Source: Globodera rostochiensis (taxonomy: Eukaryota > Nematoda > Chromadorea > Rhabditida > Heteroderidae). Taken from it: a stretch of 64,000 nt of DNA. The DNA lies in assembly GCA_018350325.1 (NCBI GenBank), contig JAEVLN010000004.1, forward strand, positions 3,162,001-3,226,000, read 5' to 3'. Of this stretch, positions 4,895-48,100 are shown in pieces. Under the pieces are notes generated by a model. That model did no database searches and was not told the DNA's origin. It saw only the letters and a list, made by a program, of their open reading frames with translations. Position numbers and translations under genes: made by a program. The first letter of the stretch is position 1. The number at the start of each line of letters is the position of its first letter.

Positions 4895-7800
4895 TCAGTC
4901 CACGTGAAGAAGCCCTCCGTCGTTTTTCCCACTTGGCAACGGGCCACATTTGGTCGTCCTTTCTCGAATATTGGCCAATTTCAGTGATTCAGATGCTGGC
5001 ACCAGCCGCTGATAGCACAGCAGCCACAGAAAAATGCCAAAGGAAAACAGAAGAATTTCCATCACCCAAATGGGCCGGGGCCCGTAGGTCTGGTAGGCAA
5101 AGCTGTGAGTGATGGCATTTTGAAAAGTTTAAAAGTCCATGTTCCGATCGTTGTCCAACAAACTCCAAATTGATCAGATCATGAACTCCCCCCACTTACT
5201 TGATCAGCGGTGGCCTAAATAAATTCGAGTCTGAACTGCAAAAGTGAATTATATTTACCCGAACAGTATTAACGACTCGCCAACGGAGAAGAATATTCCC
5301 TGCATGGTGCCCTGCTTGATGGGCCCAAGCTGGAAATTTTGATTAACGGCTTGGGCCCCGAACAATTTATGGCCCACAATTTATGGGTCAGGACCCAAAC
5401 CCGCCCTTGGGGCCCACTTACCATGCGCGAGTACAGCGTGTCCAGATTCATTTGGCCAACCGGCATGGCCAACCCAAAACACAACACCAACGCCACGTGG
5501 TATACGTACACATTGATGGCCTAAAATAATCTTTTTCGAATTTTCGTCCATTTTTTGCAATTTGTTGCCTCACCGGAGTGCTGTCGCACCAGCTGTACTG
5601 GCCCCGATCGCATCCATTTGATGCCAAAACCAAAGTCGAAGTTTCGTTTACTGAGAATGATTCAAATTGTCGCTGAACTAAACCACCAAACAAACATATT
5701 TTAGGACATTTTTTAAAGTCAAACAAGATACCGTACCCGTTAATGAGGTATACTGTAAACAATGATAAAATAGTACAAATACAGTATCTACCCTGGGAAA
5801 GGTTTTGCCGGAACTGCGGCCGTGGCATTTGCGTGCCAAGAAAGGGCCATGGGAAGGAGACCACGAAGAATGTAAGCATCAGACACAACTAAATCGCGCG
5901 AATTTGGCCGTGAGACTGGCAATTCTCACCGAGAATAAAATGCACTTGCGCTCTTTGAGGCGTGAAGAAATGCGCATGGAATAGCCCAACGAAATGAGAA
6001 GTCCCATGCCGCCCGTGACCGCTTGGGGGGAGGGGGGGGGGGGATTTGGAAGGATTTTGGGGGGGGGGGGAATAGCCCAACGAAATGAGAAGTCCCATGC
6101 CGCCGTGACGCCTTGGGGGAGGGGGGGGGGGAGTTTGGAAGGATTTTGGGGGGGGGGGGGAAAGCCCAACGAAATGAGAAGTCCCATGCCGCCCGTAACG
6201 CCTTGGGGGAGGGGGGGGGAGTTGGAAGGATTTTTGGGGGGGGGGGGAATAGCCCAACGAAATGAGAAGTCCCATGCCGCCGTGACGCCTTGGGGGAGGG
6301 GGGGGGGGGAGTTTGGAAGGATTTTGGGGGGGGGGGGGATAGCCCAACGAAATGAGAAGTCCCATGCCGCCCGTGACGCCTTGGGGGAGGGGGGGGGGGT
6401 TTGGAAGGATTTTGGGGGGGGGGGGGAATAGCCCAACGAAATGAGAAGTCCCATGCCCCCGTGACGCCTTGGGGGAGGGGGGGGGGAGTTTGGAAGGATT
6501 TTGGGGGGGGGGGGGATAGCCCAACGAAATGAGAAGTCCCATGCCGCCCGTGACGCCTTGGGGGAGGGGGGGGGATTTGGAAGGATTTTGGGGGGGGGGG
6601 GGGGAATAGCCCAACGAAATGAGAAGTCCCATGCGCCCGTGACGCCTTGGGGGAGGGGGGGGGGAGTTTGGAAGGATTTTGGGGGGGGGGGGATAGCCCA
6701 ACGAAATGAGAAGTCCCATGCCGCCCGTAACGCCTTGGGGGAGGGGGGGGGGGTTTGGAAGGATTTTGGGGGGGGGGGAATAGCCCAACGAAATGAGAAG
6801 TCCCATGCCGCCGTGACGCCTTGGGGGAGGGGGGGGGGGGAGTTTGGAAGGATTTTGGGGGGGGGGGGGGATAGCCCAACGAAATGAGAAGTCCCATGCC
6901 GCCCGTGACGCCTTGGGGGAGGGGGGGGGAGTTTGGAAGGATTTTGGGGAGGGGGGGGAATAGCCCAACGAAATGAGAAGTCCCATGCGCCCGTGACGCC
7001 TTGGGGGAGGGGGGGGGGGAGTTTGGAAGGATTTTGGGGGGGGGGGATTTGGAAGGATTTTGGGGGGGGGGAATAGCCCAACGAAATGAGAAGTCCCATG
7101 CCGCCCTAACGCCTTGGGGGAGGGGGGGGGGGGAGAGTTTGGAAGGATTTTGGGGGGGGGGGGGATAGCCCAACGAAATGAGAAGTCCCATGCCGCCCGT
7201 GACGCCTTGGGGGAGGGGGGGGGATTTGGAAGGATTTTGGGGGGGGGGGGGAATAGCCCAACGAAATGAGAAGTCCCATGCCGCCGTGACGCCTTGGGGG
7301 AGGGGGGGGGAGTTTGGAAGGATTTTGGGGGGGGGGGGGGAAAGCCCAACGAAATGAGAAGTCCCATGCCGCCCGTGACGCCTTGGGGGAGGGGGGGGGG
7401 ATTTGGAAGGATTTTGGGGGGGGGGGGGAATAGCCCAACGAAATGAGAAGTCCCATGCCGCCGTGACGCCTTGGGGGAGGGGGGGGGGGAGTTTGGAAGG
7501 ATTTTGGGGGGGGGGGGGATAGCCCAACGAAATGAGAAGTCCCATGCCGCCCGTGACGCCTTGGGGGAGGGGGGGGGGGTTTGGAAGGATTTTGGGGGGG
7601 GGGGGGAATAGCCCAACGAAATGAGAAGTCCCATGCCCCCGTGACGCCTTGGGGGAGGGGGGGGGGGAGTTTGGAAGGATTTTGGGGGGGGGGGGGATAG
7701 CCCAACGAAATGAGAAGTCCCATGCCGCCCGTGACGCCTTGGGGGAGGGGGGGGGAGAGTTTGGAAGGATTTTGGGGGGGGGGGGGAATAGCCCAACGAA

Positions 7801-10800
7801 ATGAGAAGTCCCATCCGCCCGTGACGCCTTGGGGGAGGGGGGGGGGGAGTTTGGAAGGATTTTGGGGGGGGGGGGGGAATAGCCCAACGAAATGAGAAGT
7901 CCCATGCCGCCCGTGACGCCTTGGGGGAGGGGGGGGGAGTTTGGAAGGATTTTGGGGGGGGGGGGGAATAGCCCAACGAAATGAGAAGTCCATGCCGCCC
8001 GTGACGCCTTGGGGGAGGGGGGGGGGGAGTTTGGAAGGATTTTGGGGGGGGGGGGAATAGCCCAACGAAATGAGAAGTCCCATGCCGCCCGTGACGCCTT
8101 GGGGGAGGGGGGGGAGTTTGGAAGGATTTTGGGGGGGGGGGGGAATAGCCCAACGAAATGAGAAGTCCATGCCGCCCGTAACGCCTTGGGGGAGGGGGGG
8201 GGAGTTTGGAAGGATTTTGGGGGGGGGGGGAATAGCCCAACGAAATGAGAAGTCCCATGCCGCCCGTGACGCCTTGGGGGAGGGGGGGGGAGTTTGGAAG
8301 GATTTTGGGGGGGGGGGGGAATAGCCCAACGAAATGAGAAGTCCCTGCCGCCCGTGACGCCTTGGGGGAGGGGGGGGGGAGTTTGGAAGGATTTTGGGGG
8401 GGGGGGAATAGCCCAACGAAATGAGAAGTCCCATGCCGCCCGTGACGCCTTGGGGGAGGGGGGGGGGAGTTTGGAAGGATTTTGGGGGGGGGGGGGAATA
8501 GCCCAACGAAATGAGAAGTCCCTGCCGCCCGTGACGCCTTGGGGGAGGGGGGGGGGGAGTTTGGAAGGATTTTGGGGGGGGGGAATAGCCCAACGAAATG
8601 AGAAGTCCCATGCCGCCCGTAACGCCTTGGGGGAGGGGGGGGAGTTTGGAAGGATTTTGGGGGGGGGGGGAATAGCCCAACGAAATGAGAAGTCCCATGC
8701 GCCCGTGACGCCTTGGGGGAGGGGGGGGGGGGAGTTTGGAAGGATTTTGGGGGGGGGGGGGAATAGCCCAACGAAATGAGAAGTCCCATGCCGCCCGTGA
8801 CGCCTTGGGGGAGGGGGGGGGGAGTTTGGAAGGATTTTGGGGGGGGGGGGAATAGCCCAACGAAATGAGAAGTCCCTGCCGCCCGTGACGCCTTGGGGGA
8901 GGGGGGGGGGGAGTTTGGAAGGATTTTGGGGGGGGGGGGGAATAGCCCAACGAAATGAGAAGTCCCATGCCGCCCGTGACGCCTTGGGGGAGGGGGGGGG
9001 AGTTTGGAAGGATTTTGGGGGGGGGGGGGGAATAGCCCAACGAAATGAGAAGTCCATGCCGCCCGTAACGCCTTGGGGGAGGGGGGGGGAGTTTGGAAGG
9101 ATTTTGGGGGGGGGGAATAGCCCAACGAAATGAGAAGTCCCATGCCGCCCGTGACGCCTTGGGGGAGGGGGGGGGAGTTTGGAAGGATTTTGGGGGGGGG
9201 GGGGAATAGCCCAACGAAATGAGAAGTCCCTGCCGCCCGTGACGCCTTGGGGGAGGGGGGGGGGAGTTTGGAAGGATTTTGGGGGGGGGGAATAGCCCAA
9301 CGAAATGAGAAGTCCCATGCCGCCCGTGACGCCTTGGGGGAGGGGGGGGGGAGTTTGGAAGGATTTTGGGGGGGGGGGGGGGGAATAGCCCAACGAAATG
9401 AGAAGTCCATGCCGCCCGTGACGCCTTGGGGGAGGGGGGGGGAGTTTGGAAGGATTTTGGGGGGGGGGAATAGCCCAACGAAATGAGAAGTCCCATGCCG
9501 CCCGTGACGCCTTGGGGGAGGGGGGGGGAGTTTGGAAGGATTTTGGGGGGGGGGGGGGAATAGCCCAACGAAATGAGAAGTCCCTGCCGCCCGTAACGCC
9601 TTGGGGGAGGGGGGGGGGAGTTTGGAAGGATTTTGGGGGGGGGGGGAATAGCCCAACGAAATGAGAAGTCCCATGCCGCCCGTGACGCCTTGGGGGAGGG
9701 GGGGGGGGGAGTTTGGAAGGATTTTGGGGGGGGGGGAATAGCCCAACGAAATGAGAAGTCCATGCCGCCCGTGACGCCTTGGGGGAGGGGGGGGGGAGTT
9801 TGGAAGGATTTTGGGGGGGGGGGAATAGCCCAACGAAATGAGAAGTCCCATGCCGCCCGTGACGCCTTGGGGGAGGGGGGGGGAGTTTGGAAGGATTTTG
9901 GGGGGGGGGAATAGCCCAACGAAATGAGAAGTCCCATGCGCCCGTGACGCCTTGGGGGAGGGGGGGGGGGAGTTTGGAAGGATTTTGGGGGGGGGGGGAA
10001 TAGCCCAACGAAATGAGAAGTCCCATGCCGCCCGTAACGCCTTGGGGGAGGGGGGGGGAGTTTGGAAGGATTTTGGGGGGGGGGGGGGAATAGCCCAACG
10101 AAATGAGAAGTCCCAGCCGCCCGTGACGCCTTGGGGGAGGGGGGGGGGAGTTTGGAAGGATTTTGGGGGGGGGGGGGGAATAGCCCAACGAAATGAGAAG
10201 TCCCATGCCGCCCGTGACGCCTTGGGGGAGGGGGGGGGGAGTTTGGAAGGATTTTGGGGGGGGGGAATAGCCCAACGAAATGAGAAGTCCCAGCCGCCCG
10301 TGACGCCTTGGGGGAGGGGGGGGGGAGTTTGGAAGGATTTTGGGGGGGGGGGGGGGAATAGCCCAACGAAATGAGAAGTCCCATGCCGCCCGTGACGCCT
10401 TGGGGGAGGGGGGGGGGAGTTTGGAAGGATTTTGGGGGGGGGGGGGGAATAGCCCAACGAAATGAGAAGCCCATGCCGCCCGTGACGCCTTGGGGGAGGG
10501 GGGGGGGGGAGTTTGGAAGGATTTTGGGGGGGGGGGGGAATAGCCCAACGAAATGAGAAGTCCCATGCCGCCCGTGACGCCTTGGGGAGGGGGGGGGGAG
10601 TTTGGAAGGATTTTGGGGGGGGGGGAGTTTGGAAGGATTTTGGGGGGGGGGGAATAGCCCACGAAATGAGAAGTCCCATGCCGCCCGTAACGCCTTGGGG
10701 GAGGGGGGGGGGGAGAGTTTGGAAGGATTTTGGGGGGGGGGGACGCCTCCAAAATGCCTTGTGAAAGCATTGTGTAGATGACCGCCTGCTCACCCGACCA

Positions 10801-12261
10801 TCCGAAAACGGTCATCGCGTACGGAGAGGAAAGCCTCAAAAGTTTGTTGAAATAAATAAATAAAATTAATTAAAATACGAAATTAAATAGAGAATAAACG
10901 CGCAGAAGTTAATGCGGGCGACGAAACATGCAAAGATGGCAAAAGGGTCCAGTTTGGCCGGCGGTCTCAACGCTTTGGGCGCTTTTGACGGCGACGCGAG
11001 AGGAACCGGACTGACCGAACCATCGGAAAATGTTATAAATTGAATGATTTAATCAAATTTAGCCCAAAACCTTCCCTAAATGGCACTGCCAGATTAGACG
11101 GCGCCCGCTCCGTGCCGTCTATGTCCGCGCGCGGCTTTCCGCCGTGTCGCTGACGCGCGTTGGCATTCGCGGCGCCGTGCATGCGCCCGTCAAAAAACAC
11201 CGCCAACAGCCCGAAGCTGAACAGGCCGATCAGCGCCTGCACGTAAAGGGGCGCTGTGTAAATGTTGAGGTGGGCGTGCCATGGAAGCGGAAGCGAGCTG
11301 GGGAAGACGTAGTTGGTGGAAAGCACGATCACTGCCATTTAGGTTTAAATTAAAAGCCAGAAATGATTAAAATTACAGGGTCCAATGATGAAGCCAAGAT
11401 TGAAGGCGATGCTGACCAGTGCCGTGGCCTTTTGCCGGTCCCGGTCTGTGCTCGATATGGCCAACTGGAACAAAGTTATTGGATTGAACCAGACCAGAAA
11501 CAGAGAAAAAGGAAAAGCCTTTAAGAAGATTAAATTCAAAAATACCTGAGTTCGCCACAGGACAATGGCACCTAATTTAAAAACGTAACCATTTTTTTGG
11601 CACTCTGTGCCATCCAAAAACCTCCTGCCCAGCCAAAAAGCAATTCCAGCGTTAGAAATGCCCATTTTCGCCATTGTTCAGCCAACATTTCCATGTTGGC
11701 ATACAAAATGCAGCACAAAAGCATCAAAAGTGTGCCGGCCAGAATGGACGGCCTCAATTTGGTAAAAGTTTTGAATTGTTTTTTTAAATTTGGTCTCTAA
11801 ACTTTAAGGTTAATAAGCAGAGATATACTGTATTAGAAGTAAAATATGAATCATTTACGGTATCACTTTGTGTGAGAGATGTAATTGCTGAAGTAACCGG
11901 ACGCCAGCGAAGCAGTGATGGTTCCCAGCGTGAGGGCTGACTTGGCAACGCCGTAGAACTCCTCGTCAACGTTTGAATCCATCTGCCAAAAGGGCAAATT
12001 ACGGTAATTTGTGCCAAAAGAAAAACGAACACTCTTCAGGTAGGGCCAACTGTTCATTTGGACGACAGTAATTTTGATGGAGTCCTGTGAAAGTTTGGAG
12101 ATGAAAATTTTAGTTCTGATCACTTTTCTGACTATGATCACGACGGAGGCAATAAAAAAGACGGAGCGCCAGTCGGTGATGAGGACGAAGACGGAGTTGG
12201 AGGAGGAGCAGGAGCGACTGGAGGAGGACATGGACGGCTTGCGGACGGCGGAGGGGGACAT
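4895..12261 (-). CDS. MFSD8/CLN7-like lysosomal major facilitator transporter
   Basis: Sixteen exons: 12261-12133, 12084-12033, 11982-11867, 11752-11622, 11571-11546, 11464-11377, 11331-~11100, 11010-10879, 10834-~10758, 6021-5930, 5888-5792, 5650-5574, 5520-5422, 5329-5259, 5214-5200, 5102-4895 (about 546 aa; human MFSD8 is 518). Collinear with MFSD8: DWRS start of TM1, NSWPYLK, LLCCILYANME, LGFIIGP, NIYTAPLYVQALIG, GWSGEQAVIY, SRLKERK, SFPWPFLGTQMP, GCDRGQYSW, GLAMPVGQMNLDTLYSRM, LGPIKQGTMQGIFFSVGES, YGPRPIWV and a last helix. MFSD8 is a lysosomal membrane protein mutated in human CLN7 disease; the substrate here is unknown. Exon 15 is only 15 nt. Weak points: the exon 2/3 junction lacks an in-phase GT donor, the exon 7 donor (GTCTAA) is poor, and the intron 9 donor fits best as GC (10757). 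Intron 9 holds a 4.7 kb array. Confidence 0.9.
5975..10745 (+). repeat. G-rich 84-90 bp minisatellite built from an exon-intron boundary
   Basis: Roughly 55 tandem copies. Each unit on + reads ATAGCCCAACGAAATGAGAA, then GTCCCATGCCGCCCGTGACG, CCTTGGGGGA with a long G tract, AGTTTGGAAGGATTTT and a second long G tract. On the transcribed (-) strand each unit carries C-rich tract, AAG, then about 44 nt closely matching the start of MFSD8 exon 10. Unit length varies mainly in the two G homopolymers, with occasional small deletions (for example in CCCATGCC). The array fills MFSD8 intron 9 and directly abuts exon 10 at 6021. Confidence 0.95.
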
Positions 12262-13006: not shown

Positions 13007-16000
13007 CTAATTCGACTTCTCATCGTAGACACCGCACGAGTGGGGGTACGTGTCGGGCGGCTTCGGCACCTGCTCATCCGTGCCGACACGGAAGGCGAAA
13101 GCGGTGCCACCCTTTGGCGAGAGTTTCATTTAACTTTCAAATTGTACAAAATTTGATCCTTTTTTGCTGACCATGTTGTGCAGCATCAGATGACAGTGGG
13201 AGAACCACCAGCCCGGGTTGCGAGCGCGGAATCGGAAAATTTAAAAGTTGGCGATGATCATAAAATGTTGATTCAATTCCGGCTTCATTCATTTCCTTAT
13301 TTTAAGGCCCAATTCGTTGAAATTCTCTCAAAATATTGATTCAAGATTAGGCTTTCCGATAGCATCGTTAACGAGCTCATAACTGTCTTAAGGATGGGAA
13401 TTCCCGGGTTCATTAATTTTTCCCCCTTATTTTAAGGCCCAATTCGTTGAAATTCTCTTAAAATATTGATTCAAGATTAGGCTTTCCGATAGCATCGTTA
13501 ACGAGCTCATACCTGTCTTAAGGATGGGAATTCCCGGGTTCATTAATTTTTCCCCCTTATTTTAAGGCCCAATTCGTTGAAATTCTCTTAAAATATTGAT
13601 TCAAGATTAAGCTTTCCGATAGCATCGTTAACGAGCTCATACCTGTCTTAAGGATGGGAATTCCCGGGTTCATTAATTTTTTCCCCCTTATTTAAGGCCC
13701 AATCGTTGAAATTCTCTTAAATATTGATTCAAGATTAGGCTTTTCCGATAGCATCGTTAACAGCTCATACCTGTCTTAAGGATGGGAATTCCCGGGTTCA
13801 TTAATTTTTCCCCCCTTATTAAGGCCCAATTCGTTGAAATTCTCTTAAATATTGATTCAAGATTAAGCTTTCCGATAGCTCGTTAACGAGCTCATACCTG
13901 TCTAAGGATGGGAATTCCCGGGTTCATTAATTTTTCCCCTTATTTTAAGGCCCCAATTCGTTGAAATCTCTTAAAAATTGATTCAAGATTAAGCTTTCCG
14001 ATAGCATCGTTAACGAGCTCATACCTGTCTTAAGGATGGGAATTCCCGGGTTCATTAATTTTTCCCCCTTATTTTAAGGCCCAATTCGTTGAAATTCTCT
14101 TAAAATATTGATTCAAGATTAAGCTTTCCGATAGCATCGTTAACGAGCTCATACCTGTCTTAAGGATGGGAATTCCCGGGTTCATTAATTTTTCCCCCTT
14201 ATTTTAAGGCCCAATTCGTTGAAATTCTCTTAAAATATTGATTCAAGATTAAGCTTTCCGATAGCATCGTTAACGAGCTCATACCTGTCTTAAGGATGGG
14301 AATTCCCGGGTTCATTAATTTTTCCCCCTTATTTTAAGGCCCAATTCGTTGAAATTCTCTTAAAATATTGATTCAAGATTAAGCTTTCCGATAGCATCGT
14401 TAACGAGCTCATACCTGTCTTAAGGATGGGAATTCCCGGGTTCATTAATTTTTCCCCCTTATTTTAAGGCCCAATTCGTTGAAATTCTCTTAAAATATTG
14501 ATTCAAGATTAAGCTTTCCGATAGCATCGTTAACGAGCTCATACCTGTCTTAAGGATGGGAATTCCCGGGTTCATTAATTTTTCCCCCTTATTTTAAGGC
14601 CCAATTCGTTGAAATTCTCTTAAAATATTGATTCAAGATTAAGCTTTCCGATAGCATCGTTAACGAGCTCATACCTGTCTTAAGGATGGGAATTCCCGGG
14701 TTCATTAATTTTTCCCCCTTATTTTAAGGCCCAATTCGTTGAAATTCTCTTAAAATATTGATTCAAGATTAAGCTTTCCGATAGCATCGTTAACGAGCTC
14801 ATACCTGTCTTAAGGATGGGAATTCCCGGGTTCATTAATTTTTCCCCCTTATTTTAAGGCCCAATTCGTTGAAATTCTCTTAAAATATTGATTCAAGATT
14901 AAGCTTTCCGATAGCATCGTTAACGAGCTCATACCTGTCTTAAGGATGGGAATTCCCGGGTTCATTAATTTTTCCCCCTTATTTTAAGGCCCAATTCGTT
15001 GAAATTCTCTTAAAATATTGATTCAAGATTAAGCTTTCCGATAGCATCGTTAACGAGCTCATACCTGTCTTAAGGATGGGAATTCCCGGGTTCATTAATT
15101 TTTCCCCCTTATTTTAAGGCCCAATTCGTTGAAATTCTCTTAAAATATTGATTCAAGATTAAGCTTTCCGATAGCATCGTTAACGAGCTCATACCTGTCT
15201 TAAGGATGGGAATTCCCGGGTTCATTAATTTTTCCCCCTTATTTTAAGGCCCAATTCGTTGAAATTCTCTTAAAATATTGATTCAAGATTAAGCTTTCCG
15301 ATAGCATCGTTAACGAGCTCATACCTGTCTTAAGGATGGGAATTCCCGGGTTCATTAATTTTTCCCCCTTATTTTAAGGCCCAATTCGTTGAAATTCTCT
15401 TAAAATATTGATTCAAGATTAAGCTTTCCGATAGCATCGTTAACGAGCTCATACCTGTCTTAAGGATGGGAATTCCCGGGTTCATTAATTTTTCCCCCTT
15501 ATTTTAAGGCCCAATTCGTTGAAATTCTCTTAAAATATTGATTCAAGATTAAGCTTTCCGATAGCATCGTTAACGAGCTCATACCTGTCTTAAGGATGGG
15601 AATTCCCGGGTTCATTAATTTTTCCCCCTTATTTTAAGGCCCAATTCGTTGAAATTCTCTTAAAATATTGATTCAAGATTAAGCTTTCCGATAGCATCGT
15701 TAACGAGCTCATACCTGTCTTAAGGATGGGAATTCCCGGGTTCATTAATTTTTCCCCCTTATTTTAAGGCCCAATTCGTTGAAATTCTCTTAAAATATTG
15801 ATTCAAGATTAAGCTTTCCGATAGCATCGTTAACGAGCTCATACCTGTCTTAAGGATGGGAATTCCCGGGTTCATTAATTTTTCCCCCTTATTTTAAGGC
15901 CCAATTCGTTGAAATTCTCTTAAAATATTGATTCAAGATTAAGCTTTCCGATAGCATCGTTAACGAGCTCATACCTGTCTTAAGGATGGGAATTCCCGGG

Positions 16001-19000
16001 TTCATTAATTTTTCCCCCTTATTTTAAGGCCCAATTCGTTGAAATTCTCTTAAAATATTGATTCAAGATTAAGCTTTCCGATAGCATCGTTAACGAGCTC
16101 ATACCTGTCTTAAGGATGGGAATTCCCGGGTTCATTAATTTTTCCCCCTTATTTTAAGGCCCAATTCGTTGAAATTCTCTTAAAATATTGATTCAAGATT
16201 AAGCTTTCCGATAGCATCGTTAACGAGCTCATACCTGTCTTAAGGATGGGAATTCCCGGGTTCATTAATTTTTCCCCCTTATTTTAAGGCCCAATTCGTT
16301 GAAATTCTCTTAAAATATTGATTCAAGATTAAGCTTTCCGATAGCATCGTTAACGAGCTCATACCTGTCTTAAGGATGGGAATTCCCGGGTTCATTAATT
16401 TTTCCCCCTTATTTTAAGGCCCAATTCGTTGAAATTCTCTTAAAATATTGATTCAAGATTAAGCTTTCCGATAGCATCGTTAACGAGCTCATACCTGTCT
16501 TAAGGATGGGAATTCCCGGGTTCATTAATTTTTCCCCCTTATTTTAAGGCCCAATTCGTTGAAATTCTCTTAAAATATTGATTCAAGATTAAGCTTTCCG
16601 ATAGCATCGTTAACGAGCTCATACCTGTCTTAAGGATGGGAATTCCCGGGTTCATTAATTTTTCCCCCTTATTTTAAGGCCCAATTCGTTGAAATTCTCT
16701 TAAAATATTGATTCAAGATTAAGCTTTCCGATAGCATCGTTAACGAGCTCATACCTGTCTTAAGGATGGGAATTCCCGGGTTCATTAATTTTTCCCCCTT
16801 ATTTTAAGGCCCAATTCGTTGAAATTCTCTTAAAATATTGATTCAAGATTAAGCTTTCCGATAGCATCGTTAACGAGCTCATACCTGTCTTAAGGATGGG
16901 AATTCCCGGGTTCATTAATTTTTCCCCCTTATTTTAAGGCCCAATTCGTTGAAATTCTCTTAAAATATTGATTCAAGATTAAGCTTTCCGATAGCATCGT
17001 TAACGAGCTCATACCTGTCTTAAGGATGGGAATTCCCGGGTTCATTAATTTTTCCCCCTTATTTTAAGGCCCAATTCGTTGAAATTCTCTTAAAATATTG
17101 ATTCAAGATTAGGCTTTCCGATAGCATCGTTAACGAGCTCATACCTGTCTTAAGGATGGGAATTCCCGGGTTCATTAATTTTTCCCCCTTATTTTAAGGC
17201 CCAATTCGTTTAAATTCTCTTAAAATATTGATTCAAGATTAGGCTTTCCGATAGCATCGTTAACGAGCTCATACCTGTCTTAAGGATGGGAATTCCCGGG
17301 TTCATTAATTTTTCCCCCTTATTTTAAGGCCCAATTCGTTGAAATTCTCTTAAAATATTGATTCAAGATTAGGCTTTTCGATAGCATCGTTAACGAGCTC
17401 ATACCTGTCTTAAGGATGGGAATTAGTTGACCCCCCTCCCCCCTCCCCCTCATTAGTTGACCCCCCCCCATTAGTTGACCCCCCCCCCTCCTCATTAGTT
17501 GACCCCCCCCCCCTCATTAGTTGAAATGATCAGTCCCAACGAATACCGAAACATTCACCGAATGGTGATGTACCCGCCGACGGGGATGTTGACTGTGTCC
17601 CGCGAGGACGGTCTCTGGCGCATGGCCGGCACATTGCCGCCCAGCCAGCTCGTGTTGGCCCATTTCAGGCCCACGCATCTCTCCTAAATGTTGAGTTTTT
17701 GTGACTGTTTAATAATCATTTTGAACGACATTTTATACCCGGTCATTGGTGCAGGGAATGTCCGGATTCATTGTCCAAATGCTGCCGTTGTTCGCATGGT
17801 ATCCACCGTAGCCAACTTTCACCAGCAGGAAATGCGTCCCATGCACATGGAGCGGATGTGAGTATCCCTGCACAAAACTTGGATAAGTTACAAACCGGGG
17901 AACAATCTGATTAACGGGTGGTGATCAGCAAGGAATTGAAATGGAAATTTAAATCCGATCAGATTTGTCTAAAAGGTGTTCTGGCCGGGTTGACGGACCG
18001 GTCCAAAAGGGTTGTCCATTTCGCCCATGTTGTAAATGGTGATTTGCACTACGGAGTCCAGTTTGAAGTTGAAGTAAACGAAACAATCGCAAGAATGGTC
18101 CTTTAAAAAACAAATCAAATTTTGCAAAAATGCCCTAAAACCCAATGTGCCATTGACTGAGGGTCACAACTTGTGTTCGTGTCGCAGAGATGCGCAACGC
18201 GACTCAAATTGTGGCGATTGAAGTACGGCTTCAAAATGTAAAACATAGGCCAGAGATTTGATGCCAAACTTACGATTCCAAGAGGGTGTTCGAAGAGCCA
18301 ACCATCGAAGTGATTGTCTGAGTGCATATTGGCGAACACTTCCTTAATGATACCGTAATCTCCATAAAATAATCAACAAGTCGCCAGGAGATACAGTATC
18401 CGGAATTCCTTGCACTGTATTCCCCGAGAAAAATTTACATGAAAAGTGCCGTCCGGGAAGACTTTTTGCTCCAAAAGTTCGATGTCCTCAATGGACTCGG
18501 CATTCTCCAACAGATGTACCGGCATGCAAGTGAAATTGAAGTGGGGCGGAAACTGCTTGAACGGACAGTTCAGTACAATGCATTTAGCCTCGGGCGTGCA
18601 TTGGCGATGTGTCCAGTCAACTTTTGAATGATTTAAATTAAAAAATTGTGATCAATTTCCCACCAGCGTTTGCGTCTTCGTCCACGGCCTTTTGCGTGTG
18701 AGCGTCTTCGTAGTACAGGTTGGCAAGCCCCACGGCGGGTCCGTCCATGCGAGTCCAATCCCAATTGATATATTCCATTGTTTCGACGATCACCCGATAG
18801 ACACGTCGTCGGGGAGTTTTAAGGCCCCTGGATTATTTAATTAGCTTCAAATTGGACAATAATCATTTTCACCGGATCAAAAGGTCGTATCGTTCGCCCG
18901 GGAAAAGAATCAGCGCGTCCAATCGGATCGGTTTCACCGGGGCGCCGTCTGCCGCAGTCACCCAAAATTCGTGCTGCTCAACCCAAACCATAAAACCTAC

Positions 19001-43329: not shown

Positions 43330-44139
43330 TTATAAGTTTTTTGAAGCTTTGATCGAAATTGGGAAGCTTTGATCGAAATAAGTTTTGAAGCTTTGATCAA
43401 AATAAGTTTTGAAGCTTTGATCGAAATAAGTTTTGAAGCTTTGATCGAAATAAGTTTTGAAGCTTTGATCGAAATAAGTTTTGAAGCTTTGATCGAAATA
43501 AGTTTTGAAGCTTTGATCGAAATAAGTTTTGAAGCTTTGATCGAAATAAGTTTTGAAGCTTTGATCGAAATTGAGGAGCTTTGCTTGCCTCGGCTTCCGC
43601 AGGTTGTCCATGGCCTTTAGCCATTGACTTTCCTCTCCGAAACTTCGCTCCGCCGGTGCCCTCCGCTCTTTCGGCCCAATGAAAATGGTCGCCGGCGGCG
43701 CCTCGCCGTCCAAAAAGCGTTTGTTCGGCCCCAAAAAGTCGGCAATATGAAACCCCCGCGGCGTTAGGGCGGCGTCTGAACCTAAAAATGTCTGCGTTTT
43801 CCTGCAAAGTTCTGAGATTTGGGCGCAAATTCTTGTTCTTATGGCTCAGTTCTTTCGGAATTCCAAAAAATAAAGAGCCCTTTGATTTTCCTCGAATTTC
43901 GACCGATTCTTGTCCCATATAATGAAATCTCCCGGAGGGATGCCAAGTGAATGGAAAGGGTTTTGGCACATTTGAATTGGTTTTGGGTGTCCGGCATTGG
44001 CCTTACTGAGAATGTCCGGGTTGACAAAAAGTTGTCGCGTTGCGGGCAGAAACATATAACTGACGGAGCCCGTGCTGAACAGGCCGAACGCGACGACCAG
44101 CGGCAGAAACGGCGACGGGACGGCGGCGATCGGACGCAT
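43330..44139 (-). CDS. small membrane protein ending in 8-residue repeats, unknown
   Basis: Two exons joined in phase 1: 44139-44007 and 43781-43330 (about 194 aa). Exon 1 encodes one membrane segment (LPLVVAFGLFSTGSVSYMFL) followed by RQLFVNPDILS, faintly reminiscent of small mitochondrial MLRQ/B12D-type proteins, but this is weak. Exon 2 continues FHIADFLGPNKRFLDGEAPP, then IFIGPKERRAPAERSFG and a basic segment. The C-terminus is a run of FDQSFKTY octapeptides encoded by a 24 bp minisatellite before the stop. The donor GTAAGG and acceptor TTTTTAG are good. Function unknown. Confidence 0.65.
43338..43570 (-). repeat. 24 bp minisatellite, in coding frame
   Basis: About nine copies of a unit with TTTTGAAGCTTTGATCGAAA plus TAAG (+ strand). 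The unit length is a multiple of three and contains no stop in the frame of the overlapping gene, giving FDQSFKTY repeats. Confidence 0.95.
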
Positions 44140-45161: not shown

Positions 45162-48100
45162 TTATGTCAACTCCAATTGCCACAGCTGATCGTTAATGTA
45201 AGTGCGTAGCTGAAGTGCCAATTCGTGCGGGTAAACCGTCCGATCGGTGAACCATTCATTTCTAACGGTGCCAATTTTGGCGTAAATTTAAAAAAAACAA
45301 TTCAATTCATTCCATTACCCAGTCAACAGCTCAATGTCACGAATTCGCGAAGTATGGCGGAAAATGTACTCGACGGGAAACTTAAATATGGGAATAAATT
45401 GCTTAAATTGTGTCGGCCACTCACCAAACAGTTCAAATCCCGCTCCAGCAGCGGCAGCACGAAGGACAGCGTGCTGGTGTTCTCCGGCCGCGAGCACCAC
45501 CGTCCCCTTGCGTCCCATTGGTCCGCGCCGGGGCATCGGAGCAGTATCAGAAACACGTGGGACGGCGACGTTGCTGCAGCATCGGCCGTCGCCGAGTCCC
45601 AATCCACCAGCCCGTCGTTGTCGTGGTCCCACACCGGACCGGACCACATCAGCAACCGCTTGTAGTGCTGCACGTACTGTCGTATCAAACTGAAATTCGG
45701 CGATTGTTGGATGACCAATCGAAAAGTGATCAAACATAAAACCTACGACAAAATTTGTTGCCAGACGCCTAAATTTTGAAGAAATTATCCTCCAAAATTT
45801 AATTTGATTTTTACCGTTGTAAAAGCCAATCGGCACGCGGATTTTGCCCTGATGGATGTACCGGGCATAATCTAAACAAAATGCCAATAATCGGTCAAAT
45901 TCGTTTCTTTCCAATTACGGCACCATTGTCCGAAAACAGACTGATCCACGCATTTCCGCTCGCGTTGTTTGCCAAAGTGCCGAGCCGCACGCATTGCTCA
46001 TGGCTCGTCGGCGTCGACTGACTGAAAATGTTGAGGGCTTTGTCCATTGCACAACCGGATGCTTTCTGAGCAAAGCCAATCCCGGAAAGTCCGATCAAAA
46101 GTCAAAACCCGGAATCAGAGCCAATCCCGGAAAGTCCGATCAAAAGTCAAAACCCGGAATCAGAGCCAATCCCGGAAAGTCCGATCAAAAGTCAAAACCC
46201 GGAATCAGAGCCAATCCCGGAAAGTCCGATCAAAAGTCAAAACCCGGAATCAGAGCCAATCCCGGAAAGTCCGATCAAAAGTCAAAACCCAGAATCAGAG
46301 CCAATCCGGGAAAGTCCGATCAAAAGTCAAAACCCAGAATCAGAGCCAATCCCGGAAAGTCCGATCAAAAGTCAAAACCCGAAACTCAAACGTTGGACGC
46401 TCCGTCTCTTGGTCTGCCATTGACGGGAGCGAATTATCTTCCGTCTGCTGCTGATTTCCCATTGGCCGCTCCACCATTTGGTCTTCGAATGATTCCTCAA
46501 TTTGTTAGCACATTGTGACAAAAGGCCAAAATTCAAAGACAAAATGACGACATAATCCCAGACAAAGAAATAATGCCGCTTAATTCCATTACCATTATTT
46601 CATTTGTCTCTTCGCCATTTGTCGTGCTTGTCGTCATTGTTGTCGACGCTGGCGGCGTTGTTGCCGTTGGCATGGGCCGTTCACCAGACCCATCCCCATT
46701 TTCATCGTCGGCACCGCTTTTTGGCACCAAAAAATGTGCAGAACAATTGGCACGAAAATGAGGACAAGGCATAATCAATCAATCAATCAATCAATTAGCA
46801 AAGATAAGCAAACAATCAAAAATATGTTTATTTTAAAAGAGTTTTTTTGAAGCGAAACCTTTCTAAAATGTATTTGGACTAGAATTGACCAAAAATCCTG
46901 AATTAATATCTTCCGAGACCCCAATCTCGAGTTCAATTCACCGGTACTGTATGAAAATCCCGACTTCAAGAAAAGGAGACCAACCAACCGGTGATCAATG
47001 TTTGGCACGGGCGCCGTCAGTTGGCTCTCCACAAAATTTGGCACCCGCCAACGCAAATTGAACACCTTCAAAAGTTAGCAGCCCAATTCAAACTGTACTT
47101 CCATTTCCATTTCCATTCCCTCCCCACCAGTGTGGCATTGCACATGCGCAAAGTGCACATTGGCATTCGCTGGTAAAGTTGTGCCGGGATCAGCAAGTGT
47201 TCCACGTATTTGCAATGTTGGGAAGAATAAATTGGCACTTTAGTAGTCGACGCGGACTGGTCCGGTCGGGGACCGGAAGACTCTCCGGCTCCGTCGGAGG
47301 CGGAAGGTTCGTCCGGACCGGCGGAGGACGGGGAGGAGGGCATCGAGACGGAGCCGGACGACTGACCAGAATAATGCAGCTGAGCACAAACATTTATTGG
47401 CACGCAATATTCAATGAAACTCGCCTCAAAATGGCATCCGTCGCCGCATTTGACGAGTCGGGCACCGGCACATTCGGCCAATTCCACCAACGGCTCCAAA
47501 TCGACGCTCGGCGGAGAGCGCAGCAACGAATGGAGACGGCCCGGTGTGCCGTTGTTTGGTGCGAAAAGAGAAAACAATTCGTTTGAGGCGCTTTAAAAAT
47601 CATTTTGGGTTTTTAAATGCCAAAATTATTGCCTTTTTGTAAGCAATCGTTTATTTGGTTAGCATATAAATGGAAATAAATGCTAAAAAATACCGGTCAC
47701 AGGCAACTGCATCAGTGCTTAATGGGAATGGGCAAGAAAATGCCAGATTTGCTGGGCAGGATTTGCCAATGAGGTTCAGATCAGAATCCAGCCATTTTTG
47801 GGTCGTCAGTTCCAAATGGTCGACCGACCTGTGAACAGGTTGTACAGCTCGATGTTCTGGAAGGGCTTCTCCGTGTAGCGCTGCTTGATGGAGGGACCCC
47901 AAGCGCCAAAAACGGCACGCATGGAACTCACGCGATTATCGTAGCTTAAGAAATGTAAAAGTTCACTAAATAACCCTTCCCAACCCATGTTCCCCCTTCA
48001 TCGTGCTGCCGTTCATCTGCTTGACCGTCCTGAACAGCTTGGTACCCACTGCTGAGTCAATGACCACCTCGCCAATGCGGCCACTGCGAGTATAACTAAA

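What the first reader, a model, noticed from the sequence alone, without database searches (positions are those of the whole stretch)
5975..10834. Intronic G-rich array built from the acceptor and first ~44 nt of the next MFSD8 exon
On the transcribed strand every unit contains C-rich tract, AAG, then GTCACGGGCGGCATGGGACT and CTCATTTCGTTGGGCTATT, nearly the same as the true start of exon 10, which encodes conserved transmembrane residues (GGMGLLISLGY) and sits right at the array edge. So an exon-intron boundary seeded the minisatellite, leaving about 55 tandem copies of a near-authentic 3' splice site before the real one. The real exon differs by a small swap (AAGCGGTCAC versus AAGGCGTCAC), which could mark it. 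Each unit also carries two long G runs on the non-template strand, able to form G-quadruplexes. The array could cause decoy splicing, exon repetition, transcript stalling or R-loops, and may regulate this transporter.
Basis: partly seen in the sequence, partly recalled or inferred. Interest (0 to 1): 0.85.

Follow-up and report, generated by a model that had tools for sequence, protein, structure and literature searches.

The report
Intronic array copying an exon's start
In the potato cyst nematode, the end of one short intron and the start of the next exon of a transporter gene have been copied about fifty times in a row inside the intron, leaving a long line of false exon starts before the real one; such 'mirage' repeats were known from lancelets.

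Summary
The gene is an MFSD8-like transporter of Globodera rostochiensis, minus strand. My model (16 exons, 547 aa) matches UniProt A0A914I5H5 at 535/535 aligned residues, with one 12-aa gap. Intron 9 is 4,736 nt; the other 14 are 41-141 nt. It is filled by an 89-nt minisatellite: the intron's C-rich 3' end plus the first 42-44 nt of exon 10. There are 52 decoy AAG acceptors, then the real one at 6021.

Corrections: 52 decoys, not about 55. The G runs are on the template strand; the RNA is C-rich. Exon 9 most likely ends at a GC donor (10758), restoring 12 residues whose counterpart stands in 8 of 8 relatives but not in the UniProt model. The real exon seems to carry the changed codon: decoys encode Gly, as 7 of 8 relatives do.

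Donor to first decoy is 64 nt, the likely original intron. The array probably arose by tandem duplication between an intronic C-run and exonic ...TATTCC.

This matches lancelet 'mirage' minisatellites, reported not to disturb splicing. The listings of ten literature searches showed no nematode case. Regulation is unproven. New member of a known kind.

The parts
10758..10834 (-). Exon 9 of the MFSD8-like gene (77 nt), ending at a GC donor AAG|GCATTT
   Evidence: the GC donor keeps GEQAVIYTMLSQ, whose counterpart aligns without gap in P0002-P0009. Inferred, no RNA.
10793..10794 (-). Upstream GT donor CGG|GTGAGC (last exon base 10794), implied by the UniProt protein A0A914I5H5; drops 12 aa in frame
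6022..10757 (-). Intron 9, 4,736 nt, GC-AG, 64% G+C
10694..10757 (-). Donor to first decoy acceptor, 64 nt: the likely length of the intron before the array grew
   Evidence: inference from the other 14 introns of 41-141 nt
5978..10742 (-). Minisatellite: C-run, AAAATCCTTCCAAACT, C-run, T, CCCCC, AAG, then 42-44 nt of exon-10 start; 52 decoy copies plus the real copy, and two short 26-27-nt copies without the exon part
5930..6021 (-). Real exon 10 (92 nt), acceptor CCCCCCAAG|CGGTCACGGG, donor TCG|GTGAGA; the last copy of the repeat forms its first 44 nt

Best explanation
This is a 'mirage' minisatellite. Shown by sequence: the repeat unit spans the 3' end of intron 9 and the first 42-44 nt of exon 10, the real boundary is the last unit, and the 52 other exon-bearing units keep the AG. 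Inferred: a short GC-AG intron of about 64 nt with C-runs underwent a tandem duplication between its 5' C-run and exonic ...TATTCC (shared CC), and the copies then multiplied by slippage or unequal exchange into a 4.7-kb intron. Inferred: the whole array is normally spliced out from the GC donor at 10758 to the real acceptor at 6021, because only that acceptor is followed by a good 5' splice site at ordinary exon length (92 nt). The array is then mostly tolerated baggage, with some leak to the last decoys.
For: Unit anatomy and the 53 acceptors. All 53 genome matches to the unit lie in this array. Donor to first decoy is 64 nt, and the other 14 introns are 41-141 nt. The gene stays open: 547 aa, aligning along its length with relatives, for example LGPIKQGTMQG. 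GC donor: restores a 12-residue stretch whose counterpart is present in 8 of 8 relatives returned; G. rostochiensis has 3.46% GC/AG introns with consensus AAGG[T|C]AAGT (PMC4901422, passages). Exon definition: the GC donor matches AAG|GTAAGT at 6 of 9, the exon-10 donor at 5 of 9; the best GT or GC site inside the array reaches 4 of 9. [quoted passage not shown] PMC3902484, passage).
Against: No RNA was seen. The decoy acceptors are as good as the real one by sequence, and the first lies at normal intron distance from the donor, so an intron-definition model predicts use of the first decoy, not the last. The gene structure of relatives was not available (proteins only), so the ancestral short intron is inferred. 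14 of 15 introns were placed with the UniProt protein as guide, and that model need not be RNA-supported; it also shows the GT donor, against my GC donor. The real acceptor is C-rich and ends AAG, unlike most of the gene's other acceptors. Single-base calls in the array are doubtful.
Confidence: 0.74

Rival explanations
1. Decoy trap: decoys are used often. Splicing to one of the last decoys adds repeat-encoded residues in a membrane segment, or shifts frame, so array length tunes the level of working transporter, much as the ABCA7 repeat does in people.
For: All 52 decoys keep AAG|G. Six of 52 (units 42, 44, 46, 50, 51, 52) join in frame with no stop up to the end of exon 10; unit 52 would add 90 nt. 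In ABCA7 a 25-bp intronic repeat whose unit starts with a splice donor is linked to retention of a unit, and exon 19 skipping rises with repeat length (PMC5954066, passages).
Against: No RNA. A decoy would have to start an exon of 182-4,764 nt, since there is no good donor in the array. Frame counts depend on one-base indels in the assembly that may be errors. Lancelet mirages appear to splice normally; in ABCA7 the unit-retention event itself did not vary with repeat length.
Confidence: 0.15
2. The UniProt splicing is the true one: exon 9 ends at the GT donor (10794), and the 12 residues are lost in this species, perhaps because the array weakened the old donor.
For: A0A914I5H5 lacks exactly GEQAVIYTMLSQ; the GT donor is in phase with exon 10. 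The two donors score alike, 5 and 6 of 9.
Against: 8 of 8 relatives keep this stretch without gap. Automated models in this species largely missed GC donors until manual curation against RNA; a later re-prediction allowed them (PMC4901422, passages), and I do not know which annotation A0A914I5H5 comes from.
Confidence: 0.12
3. Assembly artefact: the array is collapsed, inflated or mis-polished.
For: Strict alternation of 42-nt and 41-nt exon parts, 31 of 31 steps in units 2-33, with the deletion at varying places; variant GCGTTACG falls on both parities. C/G homopolymers are hard for long reads (general knowledge).
Against: Edges differ from the interior (units 1 and 53), and interspersed variants and two short copies look like ordinary repeat turnover. 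The existence of an array does not rest on single-base calls.
Confidence: 0.07
4. An inserted mobile or introner-like element that happens to resemble the exon.
For: One 18-nt piece of the spacer recurs once elsewhere (C78:213361).
Against: The unit search found no copy outside this locus, the C78 place shows one copy and no array of it, and the exon match is 42 nt.
Confidence: 0.02

Closest known systems
Lancelet 'mirage' minisatellites (Adh3, globin BflGb6 and BflGb9, troponin C; similar repeats in PGBD5)
   Same: Tandem repeat of an intron-exon boundary; in BflGb6 the 3' end of an intron plus the 5' part of the next exon (PMC3087553, passages; PMC3902484, passage).
   Different: Here 52 extra copies against 6 and 3 repeat units in the two BflGb6 haplotypes; unit of 89 nt with two C-runs; a GC-AG intron; a nematode.
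ABCA7 intron 18 VNTR (human)
   Same: Intronic repeat whose unit carries a splice site, beside an exon (PMC5954066, passages).
   Different: There the donor, here the acceptor plus coding sequence; there effects on RNA are shown.
Internal tandem repeats at human exon-intron boundaries in segmental duplications
   Same: Minisatellites that alter gene structure, some at boundaries, where they may form novel introns (PMC2812944, passages).
   Different: Units average 30 bp repeated 4 times, in recent paralogues.
GC/AG introns of Globodera
   Same: AAG|GC donor (PMC4901422, passages).
   Different: Intron 9 is 4.7 kb and repeat-filled; positions +4 and +5 (T, T) depart from the consensus.

Membership tests
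Mirage minisatellite | Repeat unit spans an intron-exon boundary | tested here: met
Mirage minisatellite | The authentic boundary is a member of the array | tested here: met
   Unit 53 at 6021 runs on into exon 10
Mirage minisatellite | Repeats keep splice dinucleotides (many, not all, in lancelets) | tested here: met
   AAG in 52 of 52 decoys
Mirage minisatellite | Copy number differs between alleles | not testable with these tools
   One assembly only
Mirage minisatellite | Normal mRNA splicing despite the copies | not testable with these tools
   No RNA data; the UniProt protein is consistent with the real acceptor
Globodera GC/AG intron | Donor fits AAGG[T|C]AAGT with C at +2 | tested here: met
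   AAG|GCATTT, 6 of 9 to the GT form, mismatches at +2, +4 and +5
Globodera GC/AG intron | RNA-supported junction | not testable with these tools
   Only protein comparison
Introner or mobile element | Dispersed copies elsewhere in the genome | tested here: not met
   53 of 53 matches in this array; one stray 18-mer
Intron gain by tandem duplication | No intron at this site in relatives | tested here: inconclusive
   Relatives seen only as proteins

The most novel reading that the evidence does not exclude
The array is a length-variable splicing switch: the number and order of decoy acceptors sets how much MFSD8-like transporter with or without a repeat-encoded insert is made, and copy number differs between populations. 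More widely, GC- and homopolymer-rich boundaries in cyst nematodes may keep generating such mirages, turning short introns into long ones.
Probability: 0.08. Interest if true: 0.8.

Novelty: new member of a known kind. Interest (0 to 1): 0.46.

Why it matters
How the splicing machinery tells a real acceptor from near-identical copies is an open kind of question, and this natural gene offers 52 near-copies in a row, about 89 nt apart, with the real one last; 14 of the 52 differ from it by only two bases in the shared exon start. Reading which junctions appear in RNA would show directly whether intron distance or the downstream donor decides. It also extends a pattern reported for lancelets to a nematode, shows a likely step from a 64-nt to a 4.7-kb intron, and points to a likely error in the public gene model (12 missing residues).

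Tried and rejected
Docking-site idea: the donor region AAGGCATTTTGG can pair with CCAAAATCCTT of each unit, as in docking-site splicing. The best duplex (-13.8 kcal/mol) is not unusual: 245 of 2000 shuffled donors and 1110 of 2000 shuffled units do as well, and 1072 of 2580 other 21-mers of the gene. Rejected.

Searching for the array as protein: one record above threshold, A0A914I5H5, at 8% coverage (7,968 candidates scored). A fragment query gave P0006 and an unnamed 128-aa protein, P0010, which I did not follow. No PDB chain matched at E 0.001; Pfam gives MFS_1.

A genome-wide count of such arrays was not possible: 89.5 kb in nine stretches was read, one of them chosen for the stray 18-mer.

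The first protein query used hand-set junctions that differ at several places from the final model.

Full report
What is there. The window lies in a 92.6-Mb genome of 80 contigs, at C34:3162001-3226000. The coding part of the gene on the minus strand runs from about 12261 to 4895, with 16 exons and 15 introns in my model, and encodes 547 aa. It is 535/535 identical to the UniProt protein A0A914I5H5 of Globodera rostochiensis except for one 12-aa gap; the other junctions were set with that protein as guide, so their agreement is partly built in. Pfam gives MFS_1, and a relative in Aphelenchoides is named MFSD8 by its source. It is therefore an MFSD8-like transporter; orthology to human MFSD8 was not tested.

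The array. In transcript sense each unit reads: C-run, AAAATCCTTCCAAACT, C-run, T, CCCCC, AAG, GCGTCACGGGCGGCATGGGACTTCTCATTTCGTTGGGCTATT, with small variants. Fifty-three acceptor-like sites exist; 52 are decoys and the last, at 6021, continues into exon 10. Spacing is 85-93 nt, but 113 nt twice, where a short copy without the exon part is inserted. Fourteen of 52 exonic parts differ from the real exon only in GC versus CG right after the AAG; none is identical.

Where exon 9 ends. Two donors fit the phase of exon 10: GT at 10794 and GC at 10758. The GC donor gives EQAVIYTMLSQ-AVTGGMGLL, which aligns without gap to the eight relatives returned: five Heterodera proteins (four of them from one species, H. 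trifolii), two from Ditylenchus destructor and one from Aphelenchoides. The GT donor gives the UniProt form without those 12 residues. In this species GC/AG introns are 3.46% of introns, and the initial automated models had far fewer than the manual, RNA-guided set (PMC4901422, passages seen). I therefore take intron 9 as GC-AG, 10757 to 6022, 4,736 nt. The other 14 introns are 41-141 nt.

How it arose. From the GC donor to the first decoy acceptor is 64 nt, the size of an ordinary intron of this gene. The array's exon part stops at ...TATTCC and runs into a C-run like that in the 5' half of the intron, so a duplication could have joined exon and intron at shared CC. The rest is repeat turnover. 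The duplication step is inference. The amino acid at the junction gives a direction: decoys encode Gly, the real exon Ala; five of five Heterodera and two of two Ditylenchus proteins have Gly, one Aphelenchoides has Val. The exon, not the array, seems to have changed, unless array units were altered later, for example by conversion; GGCGTC also stands at the 5' end of the intron.

How it likely works. No GT or GC site inside the array matches the donor consensus AAG|GTAAGT at more than 4 of 9 positions; the GC donor has 6, the upstream GT donor 5 and the exon-10 donor 5. A decoy exon would have to run 182-4,764 nt to the exon-10 donor. Exon definition thus favours the real acceptor, 92 nt from its donor. 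Against this, the first decoy lies at a normal intron distance, and all decoys keep AAG|G; an intron-definition machine would choose it. If decoys leak, 6 of 52 give an in-frame insert without a stop, 13 of 52 are in frame but meet a stop, and 33 of 52 shift the frame, judged up to the end of exon 10; single-base indels in the assembly make these counts soft. Skipping exon 10 (92 nt) would shift the frame.

G-rich strand. The G runs (108 of at least 8, up to 16) and all 23 G4 motifs found are on the plus strand, which is the template of this gene. The transcript of the array is C-rich and has no such motif, and R-loops of the usual G-rich-RNA type are not expected (general knowledge). A template-strand quadruplex that slows transcription is not excluded. 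Homopolymers of this kind are common here: 28 G/C runs of at least 8 elsewhere in the window and 50 in 89.5 kb of nine other stretches.

Place among known things. Lancelet 'mirages' are minisatellite-like duplications of intron-exon boundaries; [quoted passage not shown] outline and abstract). The ABCA7 repeat shows that a splice-site-bearing intronic array can be tied to changed splicing with length (PMC5954066, passages). The listings of ten literature searches (only the top of the list shown in several) held no nematode case that I recognised; the library lacks most subscription journals, and the original Adh3 paper was not seen. I judge this a new member of a known kind, unusual for its copy number and for the test it offers.

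Caveat. In units 2-33 the exonic part alternates strictly between 42 nt and 41 nt, 31 of 31 steps (0 of 100,000 shuffles), but the missing base moves about. A true 178-nt dimer explains the alternation, not the moving deletion; a consensus artefact is possible. Raw reads are needed.

Noticed in passing
6111-10580: Exonic part of units 2-33 alternates 42/41 nt in 31 of 31 steps, with the deleted base at varying positions; from unit 33 on every decoy unit has a 41-nt part. Real dimer or assembly artefact.
   Followed up: partly
10758-10794: UniProt A0A914I5H5 lacks 12 residues (GEQAVIYTMLSQ) that a GC donor would restore; likely an annotation error.
   Followed up: partly
13295-17424: 130-nt tandem repeat, about 32 copies, 99% matches, just upstream of the gene.
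   Followed up: no
17439-17524: Small C-run minisatellite (unit about 22-24 nt) beside the 130-nt array.
   Followed up: no
43339-43571 and 46074-46381: 24-nt and 45-nt arrays inside long open frames (FDQSFKTY and ANPGKSDQKSKPGIR repeats), possibly coding.
   Followed up: no
L011:4362-4379: The 18-nt spacer core recurs once elsewhere, at C78:213361, with a C-run but no array of it.
   Followed up: partly
L012:4356-5717: 24-nt G-rich array of about 56 copies in an arbitrarily chosen stretch; several of the nine stretches read hold minisatellites.
   Followed up: no
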